NCBI RefSeq assembly: GCF_900141915.1
Contig: NZ_FQZG01000016.1
Span: forward strand, 1-64,000
Direction of reading: 5' to 3'
DNA length: 64,000 nt
DNA from: Tessaracoccus bendigoensis DSM 12906
Lineage (GTDB): Bacteria > Actinomycetota > Actinomycetes > Propionibacteriales > Propionibacteriaceae
In this document: positions 24,897 through 56,539 of the stretch, piece by piece
Numbering within the stretch: position 1 is the first letter of the stretch
How the letters are laid out: each line of letters starts with the position of its first letter
Made by a program: the position numbers and the translations under genes
The notes under the pieces: generated by a model
What the model was told of the DNA's origin: nothing
What the model saw: only the letters and a program-made list of their open reading frames with translations
The model's database searches: none

Positions 24897-24996
24897 GCTC
24901 GGGCCCGATTCCACGACCGTCGGCTGATTCACCGATGCCCACACCACCACAGACCTATGATCGAAAAGACCCCGGAATGAATGGTGGTGATCCCCT

Positions 24997-25893
24997 GTGA
25001 AAACGATGACGCGTCTGTCGGAGGCCTACCGGGACGCCCGCGTCGAGCTGATCGACGACACCTCCCGATATGTCATCATGAGCGACTGCCACCGCGGCGA
25101 CGGCTCGAAGTCCGACGAGTTCTTGAAGAACAAGAACTCGTTCACCGCCGCGATGGACTACTACTGGCGAAACGGCTTCACCTACGTGGAGGCCGGCGAC
25201 GGCGACGAACTCTGGGAGCACGAGTACAAGCACATCATCAGGGCCAACCGCGCCGTGTGGGAACAGCTGCTCCACTTCCACCACGCCGGCAGGCACATCC
25301 GGATGTGGGGCAACCACGACATCGTGCTGGGCGACCCCAAGTTCGTCCGCGATCACCTGTGGAGCGCGAAGGACCCGAGCACCGGCGTGGTTGAGCCATT
25401 CTTCGACGGTTTGGAGCCGGTGGAGGCGGTCGTGTTCCGACACAAGGAGACCGGCCAGGACATCCTGCTGGTACACGGGCATCAAGGTGATCTGCCCAAC
25501 GACCAGGCATGGAAGTTCAGCCGCTTCATGATGCGCGCGTTCTGGAGGTACGCCCACGCCTTCGGGTTCCACAGCCCCACCAGCCCCGTGGCCAACTCGG
25601 ACAAGCGGCACAAGGTCGAGCGCAACTACGTCAAATGGATCCGCCAGAACCAGATGGCGCTGATCTGCGGCCACACCCACCGCGAGCGGTTCCCCCGTGA
25701 GAACGCGATGCCCTATTTCAACTCCGGCAGTTGCGTCTATCCGTCACACATCACCGCGCTGGAGATCACCGGAGGCACGATCGCGCTCGTCCGCTGGCGT
25801 GTCGATCCGAACGAGGACGCGCTCCTGCAGGTCACCCGCCGGGTGGTGGCCGGTCCCGAGCCGCTGTCGAAGTTCGACCTCCGACTCCCATGA
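24997..25893 (+). CDS. Calcineurin-like metallophosphoesterase
   Basis: A 298-aa dinuclear-metal phosphoesterase. All five blocks are present: SDCHRGD (about residues 29-35), GDGDE (67-71), GNHD (about 106-109), VHGHQGD and GHTHRE (about 227-232). The spacing and the 'DCHRGDGSKSDEF' start resemble UDP-2,3-diacylglucosamine hydrolase-like or Ser/Thr phosphatase-like members, but substrate is unassigned. Translation may begin at the GTG at 24997 or the ATG three codons later. Confidence 0.85.
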   Translation: MKTMTRLSEAYRDARVELIDDTSRYVIMSDCHRGDGSKSDEFLKNKNSFTAAMDYYWRNGFTYVEAGDGDELWEHEYKHIIRANRAVWEQLLHFHHAGRHIRMWGNHDIVLGDPKFVRDHLWSAKDPSTGVVEPFFDGLEPVEAVVFRHKETGQDILLVHGHQGDLPNDQAWKFSRFMMRAFWRYAHAFGFHSPTSPVANSDKRHKVERNYVKWIRQNQMALICGHTHRERFPRENAMPYFNSGSCVYPSHITALEITGGTIALVRWRVDPNEDALLQVTRRVVAGPEPLSKFDLRLP

Positions 25894-26026
25894 ACCGGTC
25901 GCATGTCAGCTGGAGGCTTCACAGCGACTGCCCGTGGTCTTCGTGGGTGCCCAACTGACCACAGGACCGGTGCCGGCGAAATGAACACCGCCCCAGGCCT
26001 CCCCTCGATCGCGGTAACCTCCCGGC

Positions 26027-26656
26027 GTGGACTTTCGCGATCTGCCTGACGGACGCCTGCGGGTTACGGCCCAGCAGCGTGATCATGCCGCCGCCATCCT
26101 CCGGGAGGCGGTGGTGGACGGTCGGTTGAACGTCGATGAGCTGAACGCTCGGCTCCCCACCGCCCTCAACGCCTTCACCCGCGAGGACCTCTACCGGATC
26201 CTCGACGACCTGGTTCCCTCGGCGGCGCTGCCCGCCGTGGTCGCGGAGCAGGTCCCCCTGGGCGACGGACCGGGGATGCGGTGGGAGAACCCGCTGCTGA
26301 TCCGCTCTGGATGGTCGGGTCACGCCCAGGAGGGCGCATGGGACCTGCCGCCGTTCGTGGAGATCCTCGGCACCGGTTGGGGACGCGTCAAGCTGGACTG
26401 CACCCGCGCCCGGCCGCTCGCGCGGGTCATCGACATCGTGATCACCGGCAACCCGTCGGTGACCGTCATCGTTCCCGACGGCTGGGGGGTTGACGCGCAG
26501 CAGCTGAACGTCAGCGGGCAGTCCGGCACGATCAGCTCCATGGTGCCCACGCGCCCGATGGGCGACCTCCCGCGCCTGATCCTTCGGGGAAGCACGACGA
26601 TGGCGGTGAAGGTGCGCAACCCGAGCCGTCTGGAGCGAGCGATCACGTCCGGCTGA
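26027..26656 (+). CDS. DUF1707 (SHOCT-like) domain protein
   Basis: A 209-aa protein with an N-terminal DUF1707 domain (residues 8-60: 'LRVTAQQRDHAAAILREAVV' continuing 'DGRLNVDELNARLPTAL'), a short helical module abundant in actinobacteria. The C-terminal half (about 110-205) is beta-rich, with 'SVTVIVPDGWGVDAQQLNVSG' and 'PRLILRGSTTMAVKVRNPS', like the cell-wall-active or DUF2154-type beta domain often fused to it. The GTG start has no strong Shine-Dalgarno. Function is unknown. Confidence 0.8.
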   Translation: MDFRDLPDGRLRVTAQQRDHAAAILREAVVDGRLNVDELNARLPTALNAFTREDLYRILDDLVPSAALPAVVAEQVPLGDGPGMRWENPLLIRSGWSGHAQEGAWDLPPFVEILGTGWGRVKLDCTRARPLARVIDIVITGNPSVTVIVPDGWGVDAQQLNVSGQSGTISSMVPTRPMGDLPRLILRGSTTMAVKVRNPSRLERAITSG

Positions 26657-26666
26657 AGCGTCGGAT

Positions 26667-27275
26667 TCAGGCCAGCAGGTTGCCAACTTCGGGGAACAAC
26701 GGAGGAGTCCGGGCATCCACCCACGCCGCCAACGCGTGGAAGGCCTCGATGTCGTCCGCGTCGATGCCGTCGCCCCGGGTCACCTGGTGGGCGCGCCTGC
26801 CGACCGCGATCCAGAGCCGCGACGTGATTCCGTCGGCGACTGGAGACTCGAGCAGGAAGTTGGGGACGTCGAAGAAGTTGGCCTCGGCGATCAGGCGGCG
26901 CAGCTCCTCCTCATCGGCCTCCGGGAGCTGGTAGCTGTCGGTTTCGTAGGACGTGGAGCGTCCGCCGATGCCACCAGAGACCGAGTAACGCACCCTGATT
27001 TCGGTGTCGACAATGACGCGCTTGCGGGCCCGACGTACGTTGCCGTGGTGGTCGGCGCGGTAGGTGAAGCCATCACTGAGCCGGATGAGGTACCCCGGCG
27101 TGACCACTTCGGCGCACGCCTCGTCGTCCTCGGGGAGGCCAAGGCAGGAGTCGGGCCAGTCCCTTGCCTCCATTGCTCCCAGCGCTACGCCCTCGGCGGG
27201 CACCCGTAGCAGGTTGGCGGCGTTCTCGATGGCGGCTGACAGGGCGACGAGGGCGGGGTGATCAACGGCGTTCAT
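26667..27275 (-). CDS. Emfourin-like protein (putative protease-inhibitor fold)
   Basis: A 202-aa cytoplasmic protein with two recognisable segments. Residues 20-80 contain 'WPDSCLGLPEDDEACAEVVT' plus 'PGYLIRLSDG', a module common in small inhibitor-like secreted proteins. Residues 105-200 ('EEELRRLIAEANFFDVPNFL', 'TSRLWIAVGRRAHQVTRGDG') resemble emfourin, the protealysin-protein inhibitor family. No protealysin-like gene is adjacent. The ATG at 27275 is preceded by AGGAGCGC. Assignment is by motif memory only. Confidence 0.55.
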   Translation of the reverse strand: MNAVDHPALVALSAAIENAANLLRVPAEGVALGAMEARDWPDSCLGLPEDDEACAEVVTPGYLIRLSDGFTYRADHHGNVRRARKRVIVDTEIRVRYSVSGGIGGRSTSYETDSYQLPEADEEELRRLIAEANFFDVPNFLLESPVADGITSRLWIAVGRRAHQVTRGDGIDADDIEAFHALAAWVDARTPPLFPEVGNLLA

Positions 27276-27446
27276 GGCGCGCTCCTAGGTAGGGGTGGGA
27301 CGCTTCCCGGTTAGGCCTGACGCTAACTACTTGCCTCCGACAAGGGAAGAGAGGCCCGCAAACGACGGCCGTGCTCCGGCCAAGCCGACGACGACCACCT
27401 GGAGACAGGCTCGCCGGTCGCTTCGAAACAACACAGTGCCAAGCTG

Positions 27447-28574
27447 TCAATCGACCGGGGCGAGATCAACGAGCAGTTCGTCGAGGATCTCCTCCTCGTA
27501 CCGGTCAAAGCCCTCAGGCATCCGCCACGTCCGGGCACCTGAGAGCCGGAGCAGCCGCTCGACGATGCCCCAGCCGACGGTGTCGCCGTCGGCCCTGACC
27601 CTCAGCGTGGCCGCGGGGGCAAGCGCGGAGAGGAGCCGCATAGTAGCCAGGTTGGGTTGGCCGAAGGTGCACACCAGCGGGCGGCTCGCCGTACCGTAGC
27701 GATCGGCGGCTGCTTCGACGATCGCCGGGTTTTCGCACACGAACACGTCCGGCACCTCGTCAGACAGCGTCAACGGTTGCGCAGACAGGGCGCGCAGCGT
27801 CAGCCACACAGGCTCACCCCGGACCGCCGCCAACGAGGCAGCGGGGCCGCTCCCGGTGAGGGGGAGGTTGAGCACCAACACCTGCGAGGACACGCCGTCG
27901 CACACCACGCCACCGGACTCCCAGGCCCGGTGCCAGGCTGCGGCATCGCCGACCGGATCGATCCAGCCACCGGCGTCCGCCGCACGCGCTGCGAGCAACC
28001 GGGCGACCGCCCGTCCAAGACCATGGGTGCGGTCGAGCGCGTGCGCGTCGCGGAACAGGCTGGCAGCCAGCACGGGTAGCCGTACCGCCGGCTCTTCGGC
28101 GCCCGAGCGCGCATCCAGATACCTCACAACCACCGTGATCTGCTCTGCGCGACCGGCCCACGAGTCGGCGCCCACCAGGCAGCGCTCCAGCACTCCCCCG
28201 TCGATGTCGCCGCCCAGGTCGCGGAGCACGTCGAGCCCGCGGCCCCGGTCGTCGCGCCTCGCCTCGAAGGCCTCGCGGCGCTCGGCTCGGAGGTCCCGCA
28301 ACGGACCGCCGAGCAGGACCAGGAGCTCCTCCAGCGTCGTGTGGTGGCGCGCCAGTTCGGCTCGCAGGCCGGAGACCCTGATCGGCTCCCCCGACGCCGC
28401 CCATGCCGCTCCGAGCATCCGGCCCACCTGACGCCGCTCGTCGGCGGTCAGTTCCACCTCCATCCTCGCCCGCGGACCCAGCCGCCCGGACTCGCCGCGG
28501 GCCCGCGCCACCGCCAGCACCTTGGCGGGGCCGGGCTCCTTGGCCCAGGCCACGATATGGTCCGGCACGCTCAC
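27447..28574 (-). CDS. jetD: Wadjet JetD-like protein (DUF2399/TIGR02679), putative TOPRIM nuclease subunit
   Basis: A 375-aa protein, last gene of the four-gene Wadjet operon. In Wadjet the JetD subunit is the TOPRIM-type nuclease that cuts circular plasmid DNA captured by the SMC complex. The C-terminal part has 'DVFVCENPAIVEAAADRYG' (conserved ENP motif of DUF2399) and 'SRPLVCTFGQPNLATMRLL', consistent with a TOPRIM-like core. The start is the GTG at 28574, overlapping the jetC TGA by four bases (GTGA). The longer frame to 28994 is antisense noise inside jetC. Confidence 0.85.
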   Translation of the reverse strand: MSVPDHIVAWAKEPGPAKVLAVARARGESGRLGPRARMEVELTADERRQVGRMLGAAWAASGEPIRVSGLRAELARHHTTLEELLVLLGGPLRDLRAERREAFEARRDDRGRGLDVLRDLGGDIDGGVLERCLVGADSWAGRAEQITVVVRYLDARSGAEEPAVRLPVLAASLFRDAHALDRTHGLGRAVARLLAARAADAGGWIDPVGDAAAWHRAWESGGVVCDGVSSQVLVLNLPLTGSGPAASLAAVRGEPVWLTLRALSAQPLTLSDEVPDVFVCENPAIVEAAADRYGTASRPLVCTFGQPNLATMRLLSALAPAATLRVRADGDTVGWGIVERLLRLSGARTWRMPEGFDRYEEEILDELLVDLAPVD

Positions 28575-31500
28575 AGCAACGACTCCTGTCCGGTGTCGGC
28601 ACTCGACTGGTCGACGTCGAGCCAGGACAGCGGCAGCTCGATGGCCTCCAGGGATCCCCCGGCCCAGAGCTCGAGGGTCAGGTCGGCCCCCGGCAGCGGC
28701 GCCGGGGCCCTCACCACCTGATAAATCGCCGCGGCGGGGACCACGTGGACGTTGACGAGCCGGCCCGGCCCGGCGAGCAGCACGTCGAGGTCGAACTGGC
28801 GCAGCAGATTCATCACCATGGAGCGGTTCGCCGCGTCCAGCCCGTCGAAGGCCTCGTCGAGCCAGATCGGGCGGGGGGCGGTGGGCATGTCCTGATACAG
28901 GGCAGCGAGTGTGGCCACCAACGGCAGCATCAGCATCACGGCCCGGGCGCCGCCGGACATCTCCGCGAAACTGCGGGCTGTCAACGGGCTCCAAGAGCCG
29001 CCGACGCCGATGCGCCGTTCGAGGGTGATGTCGTACCAGCCGCGGTAGTCGAGCTGCTGGGCCAGCGCGTCGTGCCAGTCCGCCTGGCCCTCGTTGACGG
29101 CTTGGCGCTTGGCCTCATCCACCCGGTTGCGCAGGAACTCCCTCACCTGCGCCTGCACCTCCGGGTCCAGCAGCCCGGATCCCGCGACGGCGTCGAGCAC
29201 CGCGCGGTGCTGGCCGGGCTCGAACCGGATCTTCATGGCGGTACCGCTCGTGGTGGTGGAGTGCTCCCCCAGCACCTTGTTGATGTGGCCCACGAGCGTC
29301 CTCGCCGTGCCGATCCGCTCCCGCATGTGCTCGAGGAAGGTGGAGCCGAGGAGTTCGTCCAATGTCTCCTGCACTCGCGCGTCGTAGGCGCTCTCCAACG
29401 TCGCGACAGTGGACGCGAGGTGATCCACCGCCTCGTGCAGCGGCAGCACCGCACCGTTGGAGTTGACGGTGACGTCGATCCGGATCAGGTCGTCGGCGGG
29501 TTCGAGTTTGAGGGCGCGCCCGCCCTGCTCGAGCTCCGCGTTCACCTCTCGCGCGCGGCCCTCCAACGTGGAGCGCAGGCGTTGGAGCTCCTGCGCGTTC
29601 GCGTCGGCCCGCTCCGGGCCATCCTCCCACCGTCGCGGGGTGACGGATCGGCGCACGGCCGCCACCTGGGCGCGCACGTTCTCGATCGCGGACGAGCCCG
29701 GTTCCGGCAACTCGAGCCGCAGATGGGCGGCGACGCCGCGGTCCACCAGCGAACGGAACTCGGCGAACGCGGCGTCTCGTTCCCGCGTCGCGACGTCGCG
29801 CTCCACCTCCAGGTTCTGCAGCCGCTCCCGCGCGGCTCCGAGCCGCACCGACTGCGCGACCCGCTCACCGCCCAGCACCTCCCGATCCCTCGTCGCTGAC
29901 GCGGACTCACGCCGCAGTTCCTCCAGCCGCTCGAGGACCCGCGTGTCGTCAGCCCCGATGGCAGCCCGCAGCTCCTGGGCGGTCCGCCGGGCCGCGCCGA
30001 GCACACGCTCGGACTCGCTGAGCGCGACGGCGAGCGTCGCCTCATCTTGGTCCGCCGCGAGGCGCCTGGCCGCGGACTCCTCCGAGAGCCGTTCCGCTAA
30101 GCTCAGCAGGTCCTGGTCGTGGCGCAGCCGGTCCAGACCGCGCTCGACGGCGTGCAACGTCTCCCGGACCCCGTCGAGCCCGCCGGCGGTGGCCGGGAGC
30201 CTCGCCTCGCCCACATGGCGGAGGTGATCGGCGTGCCGGGCGTCGGCATCGGCCCGCGCCGCCCGGCCCAGCTCGACGGCGCGCTCGGCCTCGTCCCTCG
30301 CCTCCTCGGCGATCCGGTGCCGTTCAGCGGCCCGGTCCAGGGTGCGCCGGAGCTCGGCATCCTTGGGTGCTCGCCCCAACGCGTCGACGAGCACGTGGAG
30401 TGCCGCGGCGGCGGCATCGGCGCTCGCCCGGTGCCTCTCGGCCTCGTGCTCGCGCAGCGTCCGCTCATGCGCGAGGTCCGCCAGCCGACGTCGGCGACTC
30501 GACTCGCGGGCCGCCTCGCCCAACCACTCGGCCTCGACGCTCGTCGGCGCCGCCGCGCCGGTGAGGCCCGAACTGCGCCACCGTCCGTCGACGGCGACGG
30601 CCAACCCCGCCTGCGGCAGCGGCTCACCCGCACCCCGCAGGGCGACGCCATCGAGGACGCGCTGGGCAGCCGCGGACAGGTCCCCCGCATCGTCGGCGAC
30701 GCTCAGCACTGCGCTGAGGCGGCGCCCGTCGCCGGGATCGTCCGGGGCGGTGGCGAACGTGTCGAGTCCGTGGGCGCCGGACGGGTCCACCCACGCATCG
30801 AGCAGCCCGGCGGCAGACAGCGCCGCCTCCACGTGGGCGAGGTCACGCCCGGCGAGCCCGGACGGGTTGACCAGCCGCCAGAACGGCGCGCCGGGCACAG
30901 CGTCGCGTTCGCGGCGTTGCCACAGCGACGGTGCCGACGGTGGGAGCACGCCCGCCGTCTCCAAGGTGGCGATCTCGTGCGCCAGCCGGCTGGCCTCTCG
31001 GCGGGCCAGCTCGGCGGCCTCGTCGGCGGCCCGTCGCTCCTCCTGCCGGGCGGCGTGCCGGGGGTCGTACCAGTCGCCGCGGATGCGCTCCGCGAGCGTC
31101 GGGGCCGCGAGGTCGGCGACCGATCGCGGCAGGCCCGCCCGCCAGGCGGCTGTCTCGGGGCGGGGGTCGAGCCCGGAGGCCCACGACGTGAGCGCCTCGG
31201 CCACCGCGTCGTGCTCGGCCTCGGCCTCCTGCCACGTCCGCTCGGCGGAGGCCTTGTAGTCGGCGGCCTTTGACAGGAGCCCAGCGGCCGCCTCCTCCGC
31301 CCAGGTCGCCTTGACACCGGCCTGGTCGGCGGTGCGCTGCAGCTCGGCCGCGCGCGCCACGTGGCGTCGCCGTTCGACGACCCGCTGGGCCAGCCGGTCG
31401 GCGTCCACGTCGCCAGCAACGGGGAGTCCTGCTCCCTCCGCCGTCTGCCGGACGGCGTCGAGCGAGCGTGCAACGGCGGCCCGCCGGTCCTCGACCTCGC

Positions 31501-32716
31501 TCCGGTGGGCGTCGTCGTCGGCCGCCGCGTCCCGCGCTCGGTTGCGTGCCTGCGTCAGTCCGCTTGCGGCCTCACGCTGGCGCGTCTGCGCGGCGGCGAG
31601 CGCATCGTCAGCCCGGCGGGCGGCATCGATCCGCCCCCGCGCCTCCCCGAAAGCCGCGGAGCGCTGCAGCTCGTCCGCGGCCGCAGCGGACGCCTCGGCC
31701 CTCAGCCTGGCCTCGTCCTCACGCCGTTCCAGGTCTTCGACCGCCGCCTCAGCCTCCCCCAGCGTGGCGCGTGCCGATTCCTCGTCGCGCCGGACCTTGT
31801 CGAACTTCGTCCGGCGATCGGCAGCATCGTCCGCGGTCAGCCTGAGCCGCGCCCCCAGCCAGGAGCTCCACGGCGACGCGGCGAAGCGGGCGACGGTCGC
31901 GGCCGCCTCCTGCGTGCGTTGCAGGTCGTGGCGGATCTGGTCGAGCTGGTCCCAGCCCTGGGCGAGCTGGTGGATCTCGCTGCGGCGCAGCTCCGGCAGC
32001 GAGGAGCGCAAGTGGTCGGTGACGAACCGCACGTCCAGGTGGGCGCCCAGCTTCGGCGTGCGAGTCACCTTAAGGATCTTCCCGACGATGTCCAGCTTGT
32101 CCACAGTGCTGCCCAGCAGCCTCTCGGCCACCTCGGCCTTGTAGGCCAGGCCCGACGGGTGAGCGGTGAAGCCGGGCGCGTCGATGGCCTTGGGCTGCTG
32201 CACCTCACGGCCGGCGGTGAGGCGGAGACCGTCTCGGACCCGGCTGCCGCGGGCGGTGCACCACTCGAGGGTGACCCGCGGGGTCGCGCTGCGGGCCGAC
32301 GCGTACAGCAGCGTGGTGAAGAAGTCCTCCTCGCCCTCGATGACCCGGCCGTACTCCACCCACAGCCAGCCGTGGAAGAACGACGCGCTCGCGTCGCGGC
32401 GATCCCCGTCGGCTCCGGTGGGCTTGACGTAGTACGAGAACTGCTTGCCGGAGCGGCCGAGGGTGTCGATCTTGTCGCTGGAGGTGTCGGCCAGCCAGGG
32501 GATGAGCGTGGTCAGCGCCATCAGCGACGACTTGCCGGTCTCGTTACGGCCCATCAGCTGGGCCCAGCCGTCGGCGTACCAGTACTCAGCCGCCTCGAAC
32601 TCCCACAGATTGACCACCCCGGCGCGGAGCGGCTGCCAGCGCTCGCGGTGCGGTTGCGGGAGACCACCTGTGACGGCCGCGTCGCGCCATGCTCTGAGTT
32701 CGTCGTCGATGCTCAT
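28571..32716 (-). CDS. jetC: Wadjet JetC-like SMC ATPase (TIGR02680)
   Basis: A 1381-aa SMC/MukB-like ATPase, the motor of the system. Walker A is GRNETGKSS (residues 56-64) near the N-terminus; the ABC signature 'FAEMSGGARAVMLMLPL' (about 1252) and Walker B 'IWLDEAFDGLDAANRS' (about 1284) lie near the C-terminus. Between them are very long Ala/Glu/Arg-rich coiled coils (about 270-440, 490-620 and 740-1090) with a central hinge-like region. The Walker A variant 'RNET' replaces the usual 'ENGS'. The ATG overlaps the jetB stop (ATGA). Such complexes extrude DNA loops and recognise small circular plasmids. Confidence 0.92.
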   Translation of the reverse strand: MSIDDELRAWRDAAVTGGLPQPHRERWQPLRAGVVNLWEFEAAEYWYADGWAQLMGRNETGKSSLMALTTLIPWLADTSSDKIDTLGRSGKQFSYYVKPTGADGDRRDASASFFHGWLWVEYGRVIEGEEDFFTTLLYASARSATPRVTLEWCTARGSRVRDGLRLTAGREVQQPKAIDAPGFTAHPSGLAYKAEVAERLLGSTVDKLDIVGKILKVTRTPKLGAHLDVRFVTDHLRSSLPELRRSEIHQLAQGWDQLDQIRHDLQRTQEAAATVARFAASPWSSWLGARLRLTADDAADRRTKFDKVRRDEESARATLGEAEAAVEDLERREDEARLRAEASAAAADELQRSAAFGEARGRIDAARRADDALAAAQTRQREAASGLTQARNRARDAAADDDAHRSEVEDRRAAVARSLDAVRQTAEGAGLPVAGDVDADRLAQRVVERRRHVARAAELQRTADQAGVKATWAEEAAAGLLSKAADYKASAERTWQEAEAEHDAVAEALTSWASGLDPRPETAAWRAGLPRSVADLAAPTLAERIRGDWYDPRHAARQEERRAADEAAELARREASRLAHEIATLETAGVLPPSAPSLWQRRERDAVPGAPFWRLVNPSGLAGRDLAHVEAALSAAGLLDAWVDPSGAHGLDTFATAPDDPGDGRRLSAVLSVADDAGDLSAAAQRVLDGVALRGAGEPLPQAGLAVAVDGRWRSSGLTGAAAPTSVEAEWLGEAARESSRRRRLADLAHERTLREHEAERHRASADAAAAALHVLVDALGRAPKDAELRRTLDRAAERHRIAEEARDEAERAVELGRAARADADARHADHLRHVGEARLPATAGGLDGVRETLHAVERGLDRLRHDQDLLSLAERLSEESAARRLAADQDEATLAVALSESERVLGAARRTAQELRAAIGADDTRVLERLEELRRESASATRDREVLGGERVAQSVRLGAARERLQNLEVERDVATRERDAAFAEFRSLVDRGVAAHLRLELPEPGSSAIENVRAQVAAVRRSVTPRRWEDGPERADANAQELQRLRSTLEGRAREVNAELEQGGRALKLEPADDLIRIDVTVNSNGAVLPLHEAVDHLASTVATLESAYDARVQETLDELLGSTFLEHMRERIGTARTLVGHINKVLGEHSTTTSGTAMKIRFEPGQHRAVLDAVAGSGLLDPEVQAQVREFLRNRVDEAKRQAVNEGQADWHDALAQQLDYRGWYDITLERRIGVGGSWSPLTARSFAEMSGGARAVMLMLPLVATLAALYQDMPTAPRPIWLDEAFDGLDAANRSMVMNLLRQFDLDVLLAGPGRLVNVHVVPAAAIYQVVRAPAPLPGADLTLELWAGGSLEAIELPLSWLDVDQSSADTGQESLL

Positions 32717-33870
32717 CGATCCTCCGGAAAGAGCGGCGTGGGCGCCGCGGCTGGCTGGGCTAGGTCGGCGCCGCGGAAGCGCCCGGCCAACGGGGTCAGC
32801 TGCCAGGCGCCGTCGGGCTGAACCCGCAGGAGCCCGAGATCCCGTAGCCGCGCCTCGGCGGCGCTGAGCACCAGGTCGGGCAAGTCCTGCATCGCCTTCG
32901 TCAGGTACCTACCCTGCGAGGCATGCAGCTCGCGCGCGAGGCCGGCCACCCGATCCTGCGGGCAGGTGGGCGTGCCACCGTCCGTGACTCGGGCCACGTC
33001 GTCGAGGAGGCGGAGCGCCACCCAATCCCTGGCGGTCGCCGACGGGAAGTCGAGGTAGACAGACGCCGGCAGCTCCCGGTCTGCGGGCAGCACCAGGAGG
33101 ATCAGGTCTGAGCGGATCTCCACCGTGCCACCTGTCATCTCCCCCGCCAGGGACGCGAGTCGGGTCCGTTGTCCCCACAGGTACTGCTGCTCGTCCTCGG
33201 GCAGCTCATCGACGAGGATGCCTTGGGTTTCGACGAGCTGACGCAGCAGCCTCGCACCGCGGGAGTCCTCGGCCGAGTGGCCACGCCCGGCCAGCGCCAA
33301 GTCGACGTCGTCGGTGCTGATCAGCAGCGTGAGGGCGTCGCGGTGCAGGACGAGGCCCGCGCCGATCCCCTCCGCGCCACGCTCCCACTCCTCAATGAGA
33401 CGGTCGTCTGTGCGCCGCTCCAGCACGCCATGAGCCACGAGCCGGTCCACGGCACTAACCAGTTCCTGACGGTGTGAGCGCAGGTTGGGGTCGTACGGGG
33501 GTCCCCCGACCGAGGCGGTGCTGAGGTGCACGTCGTCGGAGAGGTCCTGCAGCGTGACGCTGTCCTCGCGGCGGTCGTCCAGGCAGGCGGCGGCGTACAG
33601 GGTGAGCAGCAGCTCGAATCTCGACGGCGGGTCCCCGACCGGGACAGCCACCGTTGCGTCTATCGGGACCCGGCGCAGCCGGTAGCACTGGTCGATGTGG
33701 GCGAGCCGGTAGCCCAGCCGCGCGCACCACGTGGCGAGGGTCTGGGCGTGCCGGTGGACGAGCGCGTAGAGCGGCGCATCCGACCAGGGCGTGACGGTCT
33801 GGTTCGCCAGGAGCCCGACGAAGGCGCGCTGCTGGTCCGCGTCGTAGACCCGCAGCATGGACTCGGTCAC
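32713..33870 (-). CDS. jetB: Wadjet JetB-like kite subunit (DUF2398/TIGR02678)
   Basis: A 385-aa protein of the DUF2398 family, equivalent to MukE/kite subunits that bind the kleisin in SMC complexes. Recognisable segments include 'RAFVGLLANQTVTPWSDAPL', 'CYRLRRVPIDATVAVPVGDPPSRFE' (split here), 'LYAAACLDDR' and 'SDLILLVLPADRELPASVYLDF'. The start is GTG at 33870, in a GTGA overlap with jetA; an ATG lies four codons on. The much longer frame upstream is an artefact of antisense reading in jetA. Confidence 0.88.
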   Translation of the reverse strand: MTESMLRVYDADQQRAFVGLLANQTVTPWSDAPLYALVHRHAQTLATWCARLGYRLAHIDQCYRLRRVPIDATVAVPVGDPPSRFELLLTLYAAACLDDRREDSVTLQDLSDDVHLSTASVGGPPYDPNLRSHRQELVSAVDRLVAHGVLERRTDDRLIEEWERGAEGIGAGLVLHRDALTLLISTDDVDLALAGRGHSAEDSRGARLLRQLVETQGILVDELPEDEQQYLWGQRTRLASLAGEMTGGTVEIRSDLILLVLPADRELPASVYLDFPSATARDWVALRLLDDVARVTDGGTPTCPQDRVAGLARELHASQGRYLTKAMQDLPDLVLSAAEARLRDLGLLRVQPDGAWQLTPLAGRFRGADLAQPAAAPTPLFPEDR

Positions 33871-35363
33871 GGCCCGAACTCCACGAGCGCGTCTGGGAGG
33901 ACGAGGCGGCCGTCGGGGGTGTTGAGCACCGCCGAACCGGGGCGGGGATGGAGCACGAGCCGCCAGCGGCCGTCGGCGCTCACCGCGCTGCTGGGCCCAC
34001 CGGGCGTCCGCTGATCGCGGGCGGCGGAGATGAGAGCGAGGAGGAGCACGGACTCTGTGGCGGTGAGATCGGCCCAGTGGCTGAGGGCCGTGCCCGAGCG
34101 TGCGGTCAGCGACGCCGCGGCGCGTTCCAGGTCCGCCTGCTCGCGCAGCGCCAGCCGTCGGGCCTCCACCCGTGCCGCGGCGTTGTCGACGATCTGCGCG
34201 GGGCGCCCGGCGAGGGAACGGGAGGCCTGCGCCCGCAGCCGTCGGGAGATTACGGCCGGCGGGGCCTCCCAGGCCGAGACCCGCGGACCGTTGGACACCT
34301 CGGGGGTGGTGAGGGTGAAGTGGCGGGCCGGGAACAGACCGGTGGCCGTGCACCACAGGCGCCACGCTTCCACGCCGTCCGGCGCGCGCTCCATCGCCGA
34401 CGCCAGCCTCAGCAGGTCCGCCTTCCGGGACACGGTGCCGCCGACGGCGAGCAGGGTGCGGTGGCTGCGCAGCACGGGGGCGACTGCGTCGCGGATCCGT
34501 CGGCGCAGCCGCTGGGCCTGCGGCTCCGTGCCGGCGAACCAGGTGCCGACCGTCGTGACGGCCCTTCGCATCTCCGTCACCGTCGTCGCAAGGGATGACT
34601 CCGGGGCGTCGGATCCCAGCCGGGCCAGCGCCATCGCCCGCCAGGTGTCGTCGGCGATCTCGCCCAGCCGCGGAAGGGATCCCAAGATCGCGTCGCTCCA
34701 GGCGTCCACGCCGGATCCCCACGCCTCCACGTACGCGAGGATCGTCTCCAGCAGCCGTTGGATCTTCTGCTCCGTCGGGGATCCGCCCAGTGCCGCGGCC
34801 AGCCGGGACTGCCACTCGGAGGCGGCGGCGCCCATGGCGTCGAGCGTCGTCTGGGCCTGGGCCAACTCCTTGCTGGCCGCGGCGGGGTCGCCGGCGTCGA
34901 TCGCGGCCAGCGTCGCGTTCAGACGCTCGGTCAGCGAGGCGGGTGCGAGCAGCACAGCCGTCGACGACGGACCGAGCTCCGCCTCCACCCGACGCACCGC
35001 CGCGTTGAACGCCGAACCGGCCTCGGTGAGCTGGTAGCGGAAGCGGTTGCGGAGGAAGTCCTGCTGGGTCTCGGCGTGATCCTGCCATGACTCGCACGTG
35101 CCCCATTCGACGAGCTGGCGCATTCGCGCTTCAAGGGCGAACTCCGCCATCAGCTCGCCGGTCCGCTCGTCGGGCAACCGACGCCGGATCAGCACGCTGA
35201 GCTCATCGAACCCGACCCCGGTGAGCGAGACGTGGCGTTCGTCGTCGAGGATGTCGACGATGAGGCGGTACTGCTTAGCCAGGGGCCCCGTGAGATAGGC
35301 AGCCGCGGTGGACTGCCCCGGCAGGGGCAGCAGTGCCCAGGCGCTCGGCGACTCCTCCGTCAT
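33867..35363 (-). CDS. jetA: Wadjet JetA-like kleisin subunit (DUF2397/TIGR02677)
   Basis: A 498-aa protein, first gene of the operon, of the DUF2397 family and equivalent to the MukF kleisin linking SMC heads. The N-terminal winged-helix region reads 'YLTGPLAKQYRLIVDILDDE' and 'SVLIRRRLPDERTGEL'; the middle is helical, and the C-terminus 'DGRWRLVLHPRPGSAVLNTP' is characteristic. The ATG at 35363 has GGAGAGGTGA upstream. Only 69 bp separate it from the response-regulator stop on the same strand, so its promoter is either in that gap or the operon is read from the two-component genes. Confidence 0.88.
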   Translation of the reverse strand: MTEESPSAWALLPLPGQSTAAAYLTGPLAKQYRLIVDILDDERHVSLTGVGFDELSVLIRRRLPDERTGELMAEFALEARMRQLVEWGTCESWQDHAETQQDFLRNRFRYQLTEAGSAFNAAVRRVEAELGPSSTAVLLAPASLTERLNATLAAIDAGDPAAASKELAQAQTTLDAMGAAASEWQSRLAAALGGSPTEQKIQRLLETILAYVEAWGSGVDAWSDAILGSLPRLGEIADDTWRAMALARLGSDAPESSLATTVTEMRRAVTTVGTWFAGTEPQAQRLRRRIRDAVAPVLRSHRTLLAVGGTVSRKADLLRLASAMERAPDGVEAWRLWCTATGLFPARHFTLTTPEVSNGPRVSAWEAPPAVISRRLRAQASRSLAGRPAQIVDNAAARVEARRLALREQADLERAAASLTARSGTALSHWADLTATESVLLLALISAARDQRTPGGPSSAVSADGRWRLVLHPRPGSAVLNTPDGRLVLPDALVEFGP

Positions 35364-35432
35364 ACTCACCTCTCCACGACACCCTACGGGTTGACTAGGA
35401 CAGAGGTTATCGTCCCCCCACACGCCGCTCGG

Positions 35433-36074
35433 TTACTGCCGGTGTCCGTGCACCGCGAGGGCCAACTGGACGCGGCTGGTGACTCCGAGCTTGTCGAAGA
35501 TCCGAGCGAGGTGGGTCTTGATGGTCGGCAGCGACAGGAACAGCCGACCGGCGATCTCGACGTTGGTGAGCCCTTCGGCGACCAAGCGGGCGATCTCGGT
35601 TTCGCGCTCGCTCAGCCCCTCCAGAGGGTCGGTCGCCGCCTGCTGCGTGGCGCGCGTGGCGGCGGCGACGAGGCGCTGCAGGACGAGGGGCGAGAAGGAC
35701 ATCGTCCCCGCCGCGGACTGCTGGACCGCCGCGACCAGGTCTGGCGGCGAGGTGTGCTTCAGCAGGAAGCCGGATGCCCCGGCGTCGAGCGCGCGCACCA
35801 GGAAGTCGTCGGTGTCGAAGGAGGTGAGCATGACGACGTGGGGCGGGTTAGGCAGCGCACGGATGCTTCGGGTGGCCTCGACGCCGTCGCACCGCGGCAT
35901 CCTGACGTCCATCAGCACCACGTCGGGGTTCAGTTCGGTGACCCGGGCGACCGCCTCCAGCCCGTCGGTCGCCTCGCCCACGACGGTGATGCCGCCAGAG
36001 CCTTCGAGGATCAGCCGCAGTCCCGCCCGGACCAACGCCTCGTCGTCGACGAGGAGCACCCGGATCTCGTTCAC
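35433..36074 (-). CDS. NarL/LuxR-family response regulator
   Basis: A 213-aa two-component regulator. The receiver domain shows '[18 protein letters not shown]', phospho-acceptor Asp in '[17 protein letters not shown]', and Lys in '[12 protein letters not shown]'. The C-terminal LuxR helix-turn-helix is '[20 protein letters not shown]' followed by [20 protein letters not shown]. The start is the GTG at 36074, overlapping the kinase stop (GTGA); an ATG five codons upstream is possible. It acts with the adjacent kinase; targets are unknown, but the Wadjet operon follows immediately. Confidence 0.9.
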
Positions 36075-37294
36075 GCCCACGGCAACCATGCTTCCACGAG
36101 GAACTCTCCGGACACGACCTGGGCCTGGAACCGGCCCCCGATCAGCGCCATCCGCTCGGTCAGCCCGGCCAGGCCCATCCGCGACCCGGGGGCGTCGATG
36201 GGCGCGAGCGGCACGGGGTTGCGGACGGAAACGGAGATTCCACCGGCCCGCCCGCCCGCGATCGTGGCCGTGATGGGCAACCCGGGGGCGTGCTTGACGG
36301 CGTTGGTGAACGACTCCTGGAGGACGCGGTACAGGTGCCCGGTCGTGGCCGTGCCCGGCTCGCCGGGGCCCACGTCGAGGGTCAGGTCGACGGGGTGTCC
36401 GGTGGCACGGACGGTGTCGGCGAGCGTGCGCACGTCGGCCAAGGTCGGAGCCGGGGCCGTCCCTGCCTCCGGCGGTCGGAGGACCGCCAGCACCTCATGG
36501 AGTTCCTCGACGGCCGTCTCGGCCGCCGCCCGGATCACTCCCGCAGCCTCGCGGGCGACGGCGGGATCCAGATCCGCGCGATATTCGAGGGCGCCCGCGT
36601 GCAGCGAGATCAGCGCGAGCCGGTGCGACAACGAGTCGTGCATCTCGCCGGCGATGCGGGTGCGCTCGGCCTCGCGGGCCTGCATGACGCGGGCGGCCTG
36701 TTCGCGACGGGCCAGGTCGGCCTCCTGCTGCAGGGAGCGCCACAGCTCACGCCGACTGCCGCGGTAGAGGCCGAACAGCACCAGGATGGCGACCAGGACA
36801 GCAACCCCGATCGCCTCCTGGGCCACCGTCGGCGCGGCCGCCCCCAGCGGGACGATCAACCCTCGACCGGCCGCGTACGCGACACCGAAGGCGGCGACGG
36901 TCAAGGCGATGGCCGGCCAACGACGGCGGGCGGCGATGGAGACGAGGGCGACCCCGGCAGCGGTCGCCGCGCCGTCGGAGACTGCCGCCAGCGCGATGAT
37001 GACAAGCGCATAAACGACCGCCCGTTGCTCTCGCTTCTCGTCCGGGGCCCAGATGGGTCCGCCTGGGGCCCGGTACAGCACCCTGGGCAGCAGCACGAGC
37101 GAGCCGACGAGGCCGCCCAGGTTGAGCAGCATCACGGCCGGGCCGAGCCAGCCGGCCAGCGGCGACTCCAGATAGCCAGGAAGAGCGACCAGCGTCACCA
37201 GCACAGACACTGCCGAGACGACGATCATCAACGCCACGCTTCTCGAGCCCTGAGGCGGGCGGCGGGTCCCGACGGGCGAGGGCTGGACGGTCAT
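36071..37294 (-). CDS. Sensor histidine kinase (HisKA_3 family)
   Basis: A 407-aa membrane kinase with about six transmembrane helices in residues 20-185. The H-box is '[20 protein letters not shown]' (about 220-240, phospho-accepting His) and the ATP-binding C-terminus includes '[16 protein letters not shown]' (N-box) and '[16 protein letters not shown]'. No extracellular sensor domain of size is visible, so the signal is likely membrane-borne. The ATG is at 37294, divergent from a CPBP fragment. Confidence 0.92.
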
Positions 37295-37426
37295 CGGACC
37301 ACCCTAGGGCAGCGGAGAGCCCAGCCGGTGTCGTCCGAAGGCATGAACCTGGACCATCCCTTCGGCCCCGGCAGGCACCCGGTCGACCGATGGTGCCTCG
37401 GTGCGGCGGGTCGCGAGGATGACGTC

Positions 37427-37711
37427 ATGAACACATCAACCATCACCCTTGACCCGCCGCACCCCGTGCTCAGCCCCTCGGCTGCGCCGGAGCGTCCCGA
37501 CTACCACCGGATCGCCCGGACCCAGGCCAACTACCGCTGGTGGCGGCCGTTGGTCACCGCCGTCGTGGCGGTCGCCGCGTACCTCGCGATGATGCTGCTG
37601 CTCTTCGCGGCAGCTGCGGTGGCTGTGCTGATCGACCCGCGGCTACGGATGGCGGAGCTGGACCTGCCCGCTGTGCCGTTGCTCGACATCATCGGGTCGA
37701 GGCAACAGTGA
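37427..37711 (+). pseudogene. Truncated CPBP-family membrane protein, N-terminal fragment
   Basis: A 94-aa frame: a Pro-rich cytoplasmic start, 'YHRIARTQANYRWWRPLVTA', one transmembrane helix, then 'PRLRMAELDLPAVPLLDIIG' and a stop. This is how actinobacterial CPBP intramembrane metalloproteases begin, but the later helices with the EExxxR motif are absent and the next gene lies on the other strand 14 bp away. GAGGATGA precedes the ATG. It is probably a deletion remnant; a genuine one-helix peptide cannot be excluded. Confidence 0.55.
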
Positions 37712-43653: not shown

Positions 43654-44169
43654 TCACTCCAGCCGGGCATCGGCCACGGGATGAGGTTCGGTGGTGACGG
43701 TGACCACGACGTCGCCTGCCCGCCAGTCCACCTCGTTGCAGCGCCGTTCGAGTTCCTCCAGCCAAGCCACTTCCACCACCAGCCTGTCCACCTGCACGAA
43801 GACCTCCAGGTGCAGCACGTGGCCCTCGTCCCGAGCGCGGGTCTGGACGCCGACCACCCGCGGGTCATCCATGACGGCTGCGTTCACCTTGGCGATCACG
43901 GGGTCCACCTCCGAGTTGTCGAAGGTGGTGGGGCGGGTGTCCATCAGGTCGCGGATGGCGTTGGCGGTGTTGTCCCAGCCGTCTTTCGAGATGCTGATGG
44001 AGACCACGAGAGCGGCGACGGCGTCCGCCCACCAGAATCCCAACCCGATGCCGAGCACGCCAACAGCAGTGGCCAGACCGGTCAGCCAGTCGGCCTTGTT
44101 CATGTCCGCATCGGCGCGCAGGACCTTGTCGCTCAACTGCTCGGCATAGCGCAGCTTGATCCGGCCCAT
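43654..44169 (-). pseudogene. CDF-family cation efflux protein, 5'-truncated
   Basis: The reading frame encodes only the C-terminal part of a cation diffusion facilitator: 'LSDKVLRADADMNKADWLTG' (including the conserved His/Asp-bearing helix region), one or two helices ('VGVLGIGLGFWWADAVAALVVS'), then the cytoplasmic domain 'RDLMDTRPTTFDNSEVDPVI'. The first three or four membrane helices are missing, and the homologous sequence stops where IS21 sequence begins at about 44170. It is almost certainly inactive. Confidence 0.82.
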
Positions 44170-44880
44170 GATGACGGGCGTCACCCACTCCAAGGTCGAC
44201 GGCCTCATCCGCAGGGCGGGGCTTCGCTATCCCACCGCAGATCTGCGCCGAATCGACCTCGTCGAGGAACGAGGCCTCGACCGCGGCGTGATCGCGCAGC
44301 TGGCGACGTGTTCGTTCATCGAACGCTCCCACAACGTCGTGTTCCAAGGCTTCACCGGCTCCGGGAAGTCCTACCTCGGCTGCGCCCTGGCGAAACAGGC
44401 CTGCCTCCACCGGATCCGGGCCCACTACATCCGCATGCCCGACCTCGCCGAAGCTTGGCACCTGGCCCGGGACAAGCCGCAGGGGCAGATGAAGTTCCTC
44501 CGTAAATACGCGGCCTTCACCCTCCTTGTGGTCGATGAGTGGCTCCTTGACCCGCCCGATGAGAGCATGCGCAGCATGCTGCTGGAGCTACTCGAGCGCC
44601 GCTACGACACCACCTCCACGGTCTTCTGCACCCAATACGCGAAGAAGGACTGGCACCAACGCCTCGGCGGCGGAGTCCACGCCGACGCCATCATGGACCG
44701 GATCGTCCACAACACCATCTGGATCGACACCGGCAACCACAACATGAGAGAACACACCGCCACCAAGTAACCGACCGGCGCTGGCGGAGGCTCTGGCCCC
44801 CGCCAGCGCCACTGGTGGCCCCCACCTGCAATATCACCGGCCCCCAGAGGCAGTATCCAGTGGCCCCGTCAGCCTCGAAT
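44170..44880 (+). mobile_element. IS21-family insertion sequence remnant
   Basis: The segment carries most of an istB helper gene and a following non-coding end with repeated 'TGGCCC' and 'CCACCTGCAATATCACCGGC' sequence of the type found at IS21 termini. The transposase gene istA and the left end are missing. The element abuts truncated genes on both sides (CDF at left, AlbA_2 at right), so its arrival was accompanied or followed by deletion. Confidence 0.75.
44189..44770 (+). pseudogene. istB: IstB-like ATP-binding protein, N-terminally truncated
   Basis: About 190 residues of the IS21 transposition helper: 'LIRRAGLRYPTADLRRIDLV', Walker A 'FTGSGKSYLGCALAKQAC', Walker B 'AAFTLLVVDEWLLDPPDESM', and the C-terminal 'DAIMDRIVHNTIWIDTGNHN'. 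The domain core is complete, but the first 40-50 residues of a normal 250-aa IstB are absent and the adjacent istA is gone. Confidence 0.85.
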
Positions 44881-45087
44881 ACTCAGTTCGAGGACACCGC
44901 CATGCATGCCGACGACGCTGACGCCGCCGTCGGCGTTTGCCATGGCGACCAATGGGGCGGCCAGGTCGCGCGGCGCGACCCAAGCGGACTCGCGCTCGAA
45001 CCACTGGTCCTCGGGCACCTTCGCGAGGGCGCCTTCGAGCAGGTTCGCGGTCAGGGCGAGCGCAGCATCGACAACGGCTGAGGTCAT
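44869..45087 (-). pseudogene. AlbA_2 (Schlafen-like) ATP-binding protein, 3'-truncated
   Basis: A 72-aa N-terminal fragment: 'MTSAVVDAALALTANLLEGA', 'WFERESAWVAPRDLAAPLVA' and 'MANADGGVSVVGMHGG', the opening of an AlbA_2/Schlafen-like domain. It then runs into IS21 end sequence and stops. It begins 44 bp after the UvrD-like helicase on the same strand, so the intact gene was the third member of that defence operon. Schlafen-like AlbA_2 proteins are frequent in phage-defence loci. Confidence 0.72.
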
Positions 45088-45130
45088 GGCCCATGCGTCA
45101 GTGAAGGACCAGCGCCACCTCACCCGCGAC

Positions 45131-47347: not shown

Positions 47348-50300
47348 GGAGCTGCTCCTTCCATGCCACCGCGATGGCGGCCGCGTCGGGTGCGACGATG
47401 CGCCACCCCTGCTGATCGGGCACCGGTTCGGCGTCCAACCGCACCGCGATCCGCTTGTTGGTCCAGACCAGGTCGAAGGGAACGCCGTCGAGCTCGTAGC
47501 CCACCTCGCCGTCGGGCGCGGCCACCCCGGCCTCGCTCAGCGCGGCGATGAGGTCCAACACTTCGGCCGACTCCCCCGCCAGCTCCTCTACGATGGGCTG
47601 CCACTCGGCGCCGACGTCGACGCCCCCGTGCACGATGTCCACCACCGGGGCCGCCGGGACGGCCGCGGCCGAGCGGGCCTCGAACGCGGCGATCGACGCC
47701 GGCAGCAGCGCCAGGACGTTGGCCAGCCGCAGCCACTCGCGCCAGGCCTCCTTGGCCTCGGGGATGGTGAGGTCGACGGTGTCGTCGAGCACCGCGGCCA
47801 GCCGCACGGAGCCGGGGGCCGGGACGCCCACTGCGACCGTGAGGCTGCCGTGGCGCCAGACGCGGGTCTGCGCACCCGCCGCAGACACCAGACCGACGGC
47901 GAGCTCGTCCTTCGGCCCGTCGACAGGAACGCCCCCGGACGCGAACACCGAGAACGCCGCAGCACGGGCGAAACGCCCGAGGTTCTCCGGGTCGGGCTGC
48001 TGCATCCATCCGGCCAGGAACGCGAGCGGCCCACCGAGCAGCGCCTCCCGCGCGGCGGCGGTGTGCTGCATCGTCGGCTCGGCGTTCAGCTTCTGGACCA
48101 GCGGCGCCTTGAACCACGACGGCGCCGTGGGCGCGTCGCCCGCCTCATCGAGCGCCAGGTCGTGCGCGGTGATCGCGAGCACGAGCGTGCCGCCCTGGCG
48201 GAGGATGCGGCGCTTGGCGGCGTCGTCGGCGATGTTGTTGCACTTCGGGGAGGTGTGGAACTGCCAGCCGTCGGTGAAGATCGCGATGTCCGGCAGACCC
48301 TCGCTTGACAGGACGAAGTCCGGCTTGGAGTTGGCGACGTGCACCTGCGGGCGGAGCCGGAACGTACGGGAGCCCAGCGAGACGGTGATGATGTTGCCGC
48401 CGGAGATGCTCGGGGTCTGCTTGACGGTGCCGCCCAGCTTGGCCGCCAGCCGCAGGAACGCGGCGCGGAACCGCTCCTCCAGCCACGACTCCCCCGTCGG
48501 GTCCGGCGCCGGCGGTGCCTCCGTGATCTTCCACGACGGCACCAGCGGCGGCTCCCCGCCGTCGATCCCGAGCAGCGTCCGCAGGTGCCGCTCGGCGGCC
48601 ACCCGGGAGGTGACCTCGCGGTTGTACGGGGCGGCGAAGGGCAGCAGGCAGCGGTGGCAGGACAGGCGCCCCTCGTCGGCGCAGGCGCAGTCCTTGACCC
48701 GCTCCAGCGCGCCGGTCAGCACCTGCCACAGCTCGCGCGAATCGGCGAGCTGGGCCAGGTAGCCGGTGCCGCCGGGGACGAGGTCGTGCAGGAGCAGGGC
48801 GTCGCGGTTGTCGAGCAGCGGGTCCTTGATGAAGGCGACGGCGAGGTGGTCGGGCGCGCCGCCGTACTTCTCGCTCAGCCCGAGCAGGACGGCGGCGGTG
48901 AGGCTGGGCACGGCGAACACGTCGTCGCCGAACGCGATGCCCTGCGGGAGGGTGAGCACGACGCCCTCGGTGGTGAGCTTGCGGGTGAGCAGCACGGAGC
49001 GGGTGTGCTCCTCGTGGCTGTGGCGGTGCTTGCACCAGGGCCGGTGCTCGTCGCGCTTGTTGGCCAGCCCGGTGCGGTCGAGGTGGCCGCAGGCCTCGCA
49101 GATCCGGAACCGGGGCCCGGCGAGCCTGTTGCCGGCGATGGTGATCTCGCCGGCGGTGTGGCGGCGGGGGCCGAGGTTGTACCAGCGCACGTCCATGCCC
49201 TTGAGGTACGCCACGCCCAGCCCGCCGGTCGTGTACCAGCGGTCTTGGACGGTCTGGGGGTCGACGTCGGCCGCGGTCACGATGGTGAACCCGGCGCGGA
49301 CGCGCTCGTCGTTGGAGTCGTCGATGCGGGACTCGTCGCGCCGCACGAACGCGGAGACGCGGGTGAGCTCGACGGTCTCAAACCGCTGCCCGACGTCGTT
49401 GATGCCGGCCTTCCCGCAGCGGGGGCAGGTGGTGGGGGTGTCGTCGCCGTCGTGGCTGTAGCCGCAGTGGGGGCAGAGCCGCACCGAGCGGATGGCGGAG
49501 CCGTCGTGGCCCACCTCGACGGCGTCGATGTCGATCTGGTGGCCGCCGACGTAGAAGGAGGCGCCGGGCGCGAAGTCGCGCAGGGCGTTGGCGCTGGCGC
49601 GGGAATAGTCGGCGGCCTCGGAGTGGTATTCGCCGGTGTCGGAGTCGATCCAGCTCATGGTGACGTCGAGCTGGACGGAGTCGTCGACCAGTGAGTAGTT
49701 GGGCAGCAGCCCGATCCGCTCGAGCGCGGAGATCCAGAAGTCGCCGTACGCGGCGCCGATCTGGGCTTCCAGCATGCGCTGCTCGGCACGGGCCTCCTTG
49801 AGGGCGCGGGCGTCGTCGTCGCTGTCCTGCTCGCGGGCCTCGAGATCGGGCAGTTCGGCGACCAGCTGGTCGAGGCGGTCCTTGAGGTCCTGTTGCTCGG
49901 CGTGCCAGCGCTGGGCGGCGCGGCCGATGGTGGCCACCAGCCCGCTGGACCCGTCGGGCCCGGGGGTGGCCCACTGACGCAGCGCCTCGGCGGCGTCGCG
50001 GCGGAGGGTGGCGGTGAGGTCGCCGTCGACGGCGAACGCGGCGAGGAAGCGGTCGACGGCGCCGGGCTTCCGGGAGGCCTCGACGAGCTGGTCGAGGAAG
50101 GTGTTCTTCCCCCCGGTGGGTTGCGCCAGCGCGGTGCCGGTGGTGCGGGGATGGATGGCGTCGGGGTCGCGGGCGAGGCTGTCGGCGAGGTGGGCGATGT
50201 ACTGGCGGCGGAGGATCTCCTCGGCGCTGAGGTACGTGGCGGGCGGGGTGACGGCGCCGTTGATGAGGGAGAGCGGGTCGCCGAGGCGGGGCAGGAACTC

Positions 50301-56534: not shown

Positions 56535-56539
56535 ATAGG

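What the first reader, a model, noticed from the sequence alone, without database searches (positions are those of the whole stretch)
27447..35363. Complete Wadjet operon with four-base couplings
All four subunits (DUF2397, DUF2398, SMC ATPase, DUF2399) are intact and each junction overlaps by four bases, implying fixed stoichiometry. I recall this DUF2397-2399 set as type III, but numbering should be confirmed. Walker A reads GRNETGKSS rather than the usual GENGSGKS.
Basis: partly seen in the sequence, partly recalled or inferred. Interest (0 to 1): 0.55.

Follow-up and report, generated by a model that had tools for sequence, protein, structure and literature searches.

The report
Divergent type II Wadjet plasmid-defence operon
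This is a complete four-gene bacterial machine that probably finds and cuts small circular plasmids; it is a known kind (Wadjet type II), but its motor's ATP-binding parts and its DNA-cutting subunit are altered in a way so far seen only in one bacterial family.

Summary
In detail: four intact minus-strand genes, 27447-35363, with three 4-bp overlaps. It is a Wadjet operon, but type II, not III: PADLOC gives JetA2, B2, C2, D2, and the PDB relatives of JetC and JetA are Neobacillus vireti 'Wadjet-II'. The overlaps are ordinary (A/B: 30 of 31 scored type II junctions) and do not imply fixed stoichiometry (type II core is JetC2JetB1JetA1, doubled; PMC12647877). The odd Walker A is no lone mutation: NETGKS occurs in 11 of 11 full JetC of one Propionibacteriaceae clade and 0 of 19 outgroups, together with signature SGGE-type to SGGA and a switch loop without Trp. 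JetD of the clade lacks 21-40 residues late in its Toprim domain (12 of 12 against 0 of 20), keeping E and DxD. The clade is one branch of the JetC tree, with dN/dS 0.09-0.16 in three close members. The system is patchy and often broken or lost; a congener keeps only jetA's first 167 codons beside a 7.95-kb deletion. Best reading: a probably working, lineage-specific variant of type II Wadjet.

The parts
33867..35363 (-). jetA (DUF2397, TIGR02677-like): kleisin subunit by homology, 498 aa
   Evidence: PADLOC JetA2 PDLC00534 E 1.9e-167; Pfam PF09660 295 bits; TIGR02677 146.8 bits, below its 165.85 cut-off; PDB 9qe0_E JetA E 1.1e-6
32713..33870 (-). jetB (DUF2398, TIGR02678-like): KITE-type subunit by homology, 385 aa
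   Evidence: PADLOC JetB2 PDLC00544 E 6.5e-110; PF09661 168 bits; TIGR02678 84.3 bits, below its 124.65 cut-off; no PDB sequence match up to E 5
28571..32716 (-). jetC (TIGR02680-like): SMC ATPase, 1381 aa
   Evidence: PADLOC JetC2 PDLC00553 E 6.3e-181; TIGR02680 421.5 bits, below its 462.85 cut-off; PDB 9qe0_A JetC E 1.4e-22; hinge model's best PDB match is 9qe0_A
27447..28574 (-). jetD (DUF3323 + DUF2399): Toprim nuclease, 375 aa, Toprim shortened near its end
   Evidence: PADLOC JetD2 PDLC00557 E 1.2e-60; E281, D329, D331 invariant in 7 of 7 clade sequences; AlphaFold2 model pLDDT 89.4 matches Top6A, Spo11 and JetD 7til and 8b7f
32525..32551 (-). Walker A of JetC, residues 56-64, GRNETGKSS
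   Evidence: NETGKS in 11 of 11 clade JetC, 0 of 19 outgroups
33867..33870 (-). 4-bp overlap jetA/jetB (GTGA)
32713..32716 (-). 4-bp overlap jetB/jetC (ATGA)
28571..28574 (-). 4-bp overlap jetC/jetD (GTGA)
26913..34863 (.). ends of the roughly 7.95-kb stretch missing from the same locus of congener G129 (2-bp CA overlap at the junction); removes jetB, jetC, jetD, most of jetA and the start of the gene 26667-27275

Best explanation
It is a complete, probably working, Wadjet type II (JetABCD) operon from a lineage-specific clade of Propionibacteriaceae. Inferred mechanism, by homology to studied Wadjets: two JetABC SMC motors, joined through the JetA kleisin, load on DNA and extrude it as a loop with ATP. 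On a small circle the motors extrude everything and meet, and this releases the JetD Toprim nuclease dimer to cut the circle; linear or chromosome-sized DNA escapes. Shown here: the four subunits, their order, the ATPase and Toprim residues, a hinge most like that of type II, and the clade-specific remodelling of the ATPase head and JetD. Inferred: ATP hydrolysis, loop extrusion, plasmid cutting, and that the remodelling is functional rather than neutral.
For: All four subunits hit PADLOC type II models and Pfam families. PDB relatives are N. vireti Wadjet-II JetC and JetA, and the predicted hinge ranks 9qe0 JetC first. JetC keeps GxxxxGKS, SGG and WLDEAFDGLD. JetD keeps the Toprim E and DxD and its model matches Top6A, Spo11, and JetD 7til and 8b7f. 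The clade's shared changes sit on one branch (SH-aLRT 100). dN/dS among three close clade members is 0.093-0.159 in 9 comparisons of JetA, JetB and JetC and 0.155 in the one JetD comparison. 7 of 19 clade-bearing genomes, the window's among them, have all four frames open.
Against: All four proteins fall below the NCBIfam equivalog cut-offs. The signature Glu and switch-loop Trp present in 19 of 19 outgroups are gone, so the ATPase cycle could be altered. Of 19 clade-bearing genomes, 4 have a broken frame, 4 hold only remnants, 1 has no jetD and 3 are cut by contig ends. One of the three genomes behind the dN/dS values (L036) has a damaged jetD. No function was tested.
Confidence: 0.82

Rival explanations
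1. A decaying or inactive Wadjet: the odd Walker A, lost signature Glu and shortened JetD mark a system losing ATPase and nuclease activity.
For: Frames are broken in JetA (L025), JetC (L026) or JetD (L034, L036) of 4 clade-bearing genomes, 4 hold remnants only, and G174 lacks jetD.
Against: The altered motifs are shared by 11 of 11 full clade JetC although the other 10 are only 42-59% identical to the window's, dN/dS is 0.09-0.16, the catalytic E and DxD are invariant in 7 of 7, and the window's four frames are open.
Confidence: 0.1
2. JetABC of this clade works as a MksBEF-like chromosome organiser and JetD is dispensable.
For: G174, whose locus lies on a 3.3-Mb contig, has open jetA, jetB and jetC with jetD replaced by unrelated sequence just after jetC; G147 has jetABC with a damaged jetD.
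Against: 7 of 19 clade-bearing genomes keep all four frames open, and 4-bp coupling to jetD is kept in 9 of 13 scored clade operons. Pairwise dN/dS for G174 (0.12-0.19) cannot separate time before from time after jetD loss.
Confidence: 0.07
3. Wadjet type III.
For: None found here.
Against: All four subunits match JetA2/B2/C2/D2 at high score, with only weak JetC1 and mad3 hits besides and no type III model listed (that PADLOC holds type III models is recalled). PDB relatives are named Wadjet-II.
Confidence: 0.01

Closest known systems
Wadjet type II, Neobacillus vireti JetABC(D) (PDB 9qe0, 9qe1)
   Same: Homologous JetC and JetA, closest hinge fold; JetC of similar length (1381 vs 1371 aa).
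   Different: Walker A GRNETGKSS vs GTNGSGKSV and signature SGGAR vs SGGEK. JetB and JetD had no phmmer match to any PDB chain.
Canonical type II operons (e.g. Pseudonocardia L093, Cupriavidus L092)
   Same: Gene order A-B-C-D, mostly 4-bp couplings, TIGR02677/78/80/79 annotation.
   Different: Their JetC score 1274 and 1344 bits on PDLC00553 against 602 and 662 for two clade members; they carry NGxGKS, GE in the signature and a switch-loop Trp, and a full-length Toprim end.
Sister group L086-L089 (same order, family f2)
   Same: Nearest to the clade in the JetC tree; Toprim RADFD motif and a partly shortened JetD end, 31-33 residues against 6-7 in the clade.
   Different: Canonical ATPase motifs GGNGAGKTK, SGGEK, HDEW.
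Wadjet type I / MksBEFG / EptABCD
   Same: Same overall plan of SMC, kleisin, KITE and Toprim nuclease (PMC10586767 passages); JetD fold match to 7til and 8b7f.
   Different: Only weak JetC1 hits, best E 3.7e-10, and no type I JetA/B/D hits.

Membership tests
Wadjet type II | JetA2, JetB2, JetC2, JetD2 profile matches | tested here: met
   E 1.9e-167, 6.5e-110, 6.3e-181, 1.2e-60
Wadjet type II | four-gene operon in order A-B-C-D on one strand | tested here: met
Wadjet type II | SMC ATPase head with Walker A, signature and Walker B | tested here: met
   GxxxxGKS, SGG and WLDEAF kept; signature Glu replaced by Ala and switch loop altered
Wadjet type II | JetD Toprim catalytic E and DxD | tested here: met
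   E281, D329, D331 invariant in 7 of 7; fold matches Top6A and JetD
Wadjet type II | channel-less hinge (described for nvJET in PMC12647877) | tested here: inconclusive
   hinge monomer model (pLDDT 75) matches 9qe0 JetC best, but the dimer and its channel were not modelled
Wadjet type II | restriction of small circular plasmids | not testable with these tools
   needs an experiment
NCBIfam TIGR02677/78/79/80 equivalogs | score over the curated cut-off | tested here: not met
   146.8 of 165.85, 84.3 of 124.65, 131.1 of 196, 421.5 of 462.85 bits
Wadjet type III | match to type III subunit profiles | tested here: not met
   no type III model among hits up to E 1; that the library holds such models is recalled, not checked
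Wadjet type I / MksBEFG | type I JetA, JetB and JetD partners | tested here: not met
   only weak JetC1 hits

The most novel reading that the evidence does not exclude
The clade is a distinct branch of type II Wadjet whose motor has a re-wired ATPase cycle (Walker A Gly to Glu, signature Glu to Ala, new switch loop), matched by a trimmed JetD. Together these would change when cleavage is licensed: the plasmid size cut-off, the trigger at motor collision, or even JetD dependence, since G174 keeps jetABC without jetD. It would be a natural experiment on what the SMC signature and switch loop do.
Probability: 0.25. Interest if true: 0.55.

Novelty: new variant of a known kind. Interest (0 to 1): 0.34.

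Why it matters
The type II structure and biochemistry that I met in the papers concern one system, N. vireti. A clade that keeps the whole machine under selection while replacing residues found in all 19 outgroup motors, and part of the nuclease, gives a direct handle on which parts of the SMC head set loop extrusion and JetD firing. All four proteins also fall under NCBIfam's equivalog cut-offs, so annotation by those models alone would miss such operons. The deletion scars and the jetD-less copy show how such defence is lost between relatives.

Tried and rejected
Type III assignment: rejected. 'Overlap means stoichiometry': rejected (PMC12647877 passages). JetD as a truncated or frameshifted gene (its DUF2399 match covers only positions 3-99 of 152): rejected, since the last helix (YEEE...LL.DL) is present and the missing stretch is internal and clade-wide. 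Sequencing error as the source of the odd Walker A: rejected, 11 of 11 clade members share it. A Wadjet-linked two-component system: the HK/RR pair 35433-37294 lies just upstream of jetA in the window and in G129, but was found in none of the 18 other loci searched (several are cut by contig ends or fetched short, so this is weak). Plasmid origin: no near DNA match in the plasmid collection; 19 plasmid records hold a distant JetC, all under 60% identity, in records of 149 kb or more. Phage records: no JetD match. Flanking repeats: only short imperfect ones; one tRNA, far away at 6292-6365. Not run: promoter, terminator and Rfam scans. Not followed: a 29-residue second JetD match in G119 (L024), the Wadjet of G184.

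Literature: 'Wadjet' with 'Propionibacteriaceae' gave 0 papers, with 'Cutibacterium' 2, judged by titles and abstract starts to be on other subjects, at least two of 'Wadjet', DUF2397, DUF2398 gave 0. One search found 84 papers by three of four terms; the 20 shown had no mention of Wadjet. brought no description of this clade in the titles and abstract starts shown. So I saw none in this open-access library; most subscription journals are not in it. Of PMC12647877, PMC10586767 and PMC12287153 I read passages only. The 2018 paper that named the Wadjet types and the Structure 2025 paper on N. vireti were seen only as references. Recalled, from no call: the Walker A consensus GxxxxGK[ST], the name 'switch loop' (H-loop).

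Full report
What is there. Four genes lie on the minus strand, in transcription order jetA 35363-33867, jetB 33870-32713, jetC 32716-28571 and jetD 28574-27447. Each junction is a 4-bp overlap (GTGA, ATGA, GTGA). All frames are open.

Which Wadjet. PADLOC assigns JetA2, JetB2, JetC2 and JetD2: type II. JetC matches PDB 9qe0_A (E 1.4e-22) and JetA matches 9qe0_E (E 1.1e-6); the entry is titled Neobacillus vireti Wadjet-II JetABC dimer. No type III model is listed and only weak type I JetC hits are. Pfam families are over their gathering scores, but all four NCBIfam equivalogs fall short of their cut-offs. Against PDLC00553 the window's JetC scores 602 bits and a second clade member 662, while two canonical JetC score 1274 and 1344.

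The host. Its nearest named relatives in the JetC search are Propionibacteriaceae (Propionicicella, Arachnia, Pseudopropionibacterium), and the search tool places the clade members in the window's own genus and family (f1). One copy was found in the window's genome.

The overlaps. Scored by a fixed rule on type II operons, the 4-bp overlap is found at A/B in 11 of 11 clade and 19 of 20 outgroup junctions, at B/C in 11 of 12 and 12 of 20, and at C/D in 9 of 13 and 12 of 18. It is the normal state of this operon. It does not fix stoichiometry: PMC12647877 gives the purified type II core as (JetC2JetB1JetA1)2, with JetD added as a dimer (passages).

The ATPase head. In 30 full-length JetC the 11 of the Propionibacteriaceae clade all read G[RSG]NETGKS[ST] in Walker A, SGGAR[AV] in the signature and an AGPxRL or VGPGRI switch loop. 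The 19 others all have NG at the same Walker A place, GE in the signature (SGGE, SSGE or SQGE) and a Trp in the switch loop. Walker B (WLDEAFDGLD) is kept in all 11. The other 10 clade JetC are 42-59% identical to the window's. G174's JetC, fetched later, reads GGNETGKSS and SGGARV too. In a sample of 396 genomes of the phylum 28 matched a query of the Walker A region, the window's own among them; of the other 27, 24 have NG, 2 have NTAGK and 1 is NESGKS in a protein whose flanking sequence does not look like Wadjet. So the motif is so far seen only in this family, by a sample and not a full census. A tree of the 30 JetC puts the clade on one branch (SH-aLRT 100, one change of label), next to L086-L089, which have canonical motifs. 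The motif columns were not taken out of that tree; they are a few of 1393.

JetD. Between the WRM strand and the last helix the 12 clade JetD with a readable Toprim end have 6-7 residues, the 20 outgroups 28-47, that is 21-40 more than the window; L086-L089 have 31-33. The catalytic E281, D329 and D331 are invariant in seven clade sequences. An AlphaFold2 model (pLDDT 89.4) matches Top6A (1d3y_B: Z 12.0, rmsd 2.9, 140 aligned), Spo11 (8urq_A: Z 11.9, rmsd 8.1, 204 aligned) and the JetD structures 8b7f (Z 9.7, rmsd 13.6, 230 aligned) and 7til (Z 8.8, rmsd 11.0, 226 aligned); the high rmsd values mean that the domains sit differently. Foldseek ranks 8b7f first (E 3.8e-4, TM 0.22). So the Toprim core is kept and the shortening is not a broken gene.

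Hinge. A model of the window's JetC hinge (pLDDT 75) matches 9qe0 JetC best (E 5.1e-5, TM 0.42). nvJET lacks a hinge channel and could not bypass obstacles (PMC12647877 passages); whether this holds here was not tested.

Selection. Pairwise dN/dS among L028, L029 and L036 is 0.093-0.159 over 9 comparisons of JetA, JetB and JetC, and 0.155 for JetD in L028 against L029. Window against L025 gives 0.31-0.35 for JetB, JetC and JetD, where synonymous sites are near saturation (dS about 0.9-1.0).

Distribution and loss. JetD matched in 17 of 197 sampled family genomes and JetA in 11 of 39 genomes of the genus, the window's own included in both. Taking together, 19 genomes carry the clade or its remains: 7 with four open frames (G000, G134, G159, G070, G001, G151, G086), 4 with a broken frame (G024 JetA, G186 JetC, G044 JetD, G147 JetD), 1 with jetABC but no jetD (G174), 4 with remnants only (G129, G119, G122, G117) and 3 cut by contig ends (G150, G145, G194). 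For G194 the contig end is read from L045, taken as the same contig by its coordinates. G073 and G184 carry other, more distant Wadjets and are not counted. Frame breaks in draft genomes may be assembly errors.

Deletion scars. In G129 the window's 34863-37644 is present at 99.93% over 2782 bases and 24982-26913 at 94.15%, and the two meet with a 2-bp overlap (CA): about 7.95 kb is missing, and jetA is left with its first 167 codons. The jump in identity across the scar suggests that the jetA side was exchanged recently between the two species; the direction is unknown. In G119 (L037) jetA residues 8-38 run in one open frame into jetD 285-374. In G174 homology to L029 stops at the end of jetC.

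Reading. The simplest account is a working type II Wadjet in a lineage that has replaced several otherwise constant SMC-head residues and trimmed its nuclease. Loop extrusion, the self-collision trigger and plasmid cutting are inferred from studied Wadjets (PMC10586767, PMC12647877 passages). That the changes alter the mechanism is possible, not shown.

Noticed in passing
window 44000-64000: Further defence-like genes: UvrD/GajB-like helicase 45131-47347(-), very long SNF2/DruE-like protein 47340-54200(-), PtuA/AriA-like ATPases 54059-55438(+) and 56540-58405(+), type IIG restriction-methyltransferase 58666-63525(-) with 1413 bits to PDLC03611.
   Followed up: partly
window 35433-37294: Two-component pair (HisKA_3 kinase and LuxR-type regulator) directly upstream of jetA on the same strand, 69 bp gap; shared with G129, not found in 18 other loci.
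   Followed up: partly
window 37644: A CPBP-like membrane protein gene (name from reading its sequence, not from a search) that is longer in G129 breaks off here in the window; this is also where the 99.93% identity to G129 ends.
   Followed up: partly
L029 4231-4680 and 8032-8481: A 450-bp direct repeat (95%) of the jetD 3' end flanks about 3.35 kb with what looks like a transposase fragment and a transporter; the distal copy overlaps by 4 bp a gene 2968-4302 that looks like a restriction enzyme (names from reading the sequences).
   Followed up: partly
L134 9045-15681: jetABC with open frames and no jetD in genome G174; jetC is followed by a convergent PEP-carboxykinase-like gene (name from reading the sequence).
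   Followed up: partly
L078 and L079: Type II operons in the same order where jetD lies upstream of jetA (D-A-B-C order).
   Followed up: no
L092, L093, L094, L095: Type II Wadjets carried on large plasmids (149 kb to 1.08 Mb for these four).
   Followed up: no
L094 9124-13198: On the Alicyclobacillus dauci plasmid the Wadjet lies beside a PemK/MazF toxin gene and two adjacent features both annotated cas12b.
   Followed up: no
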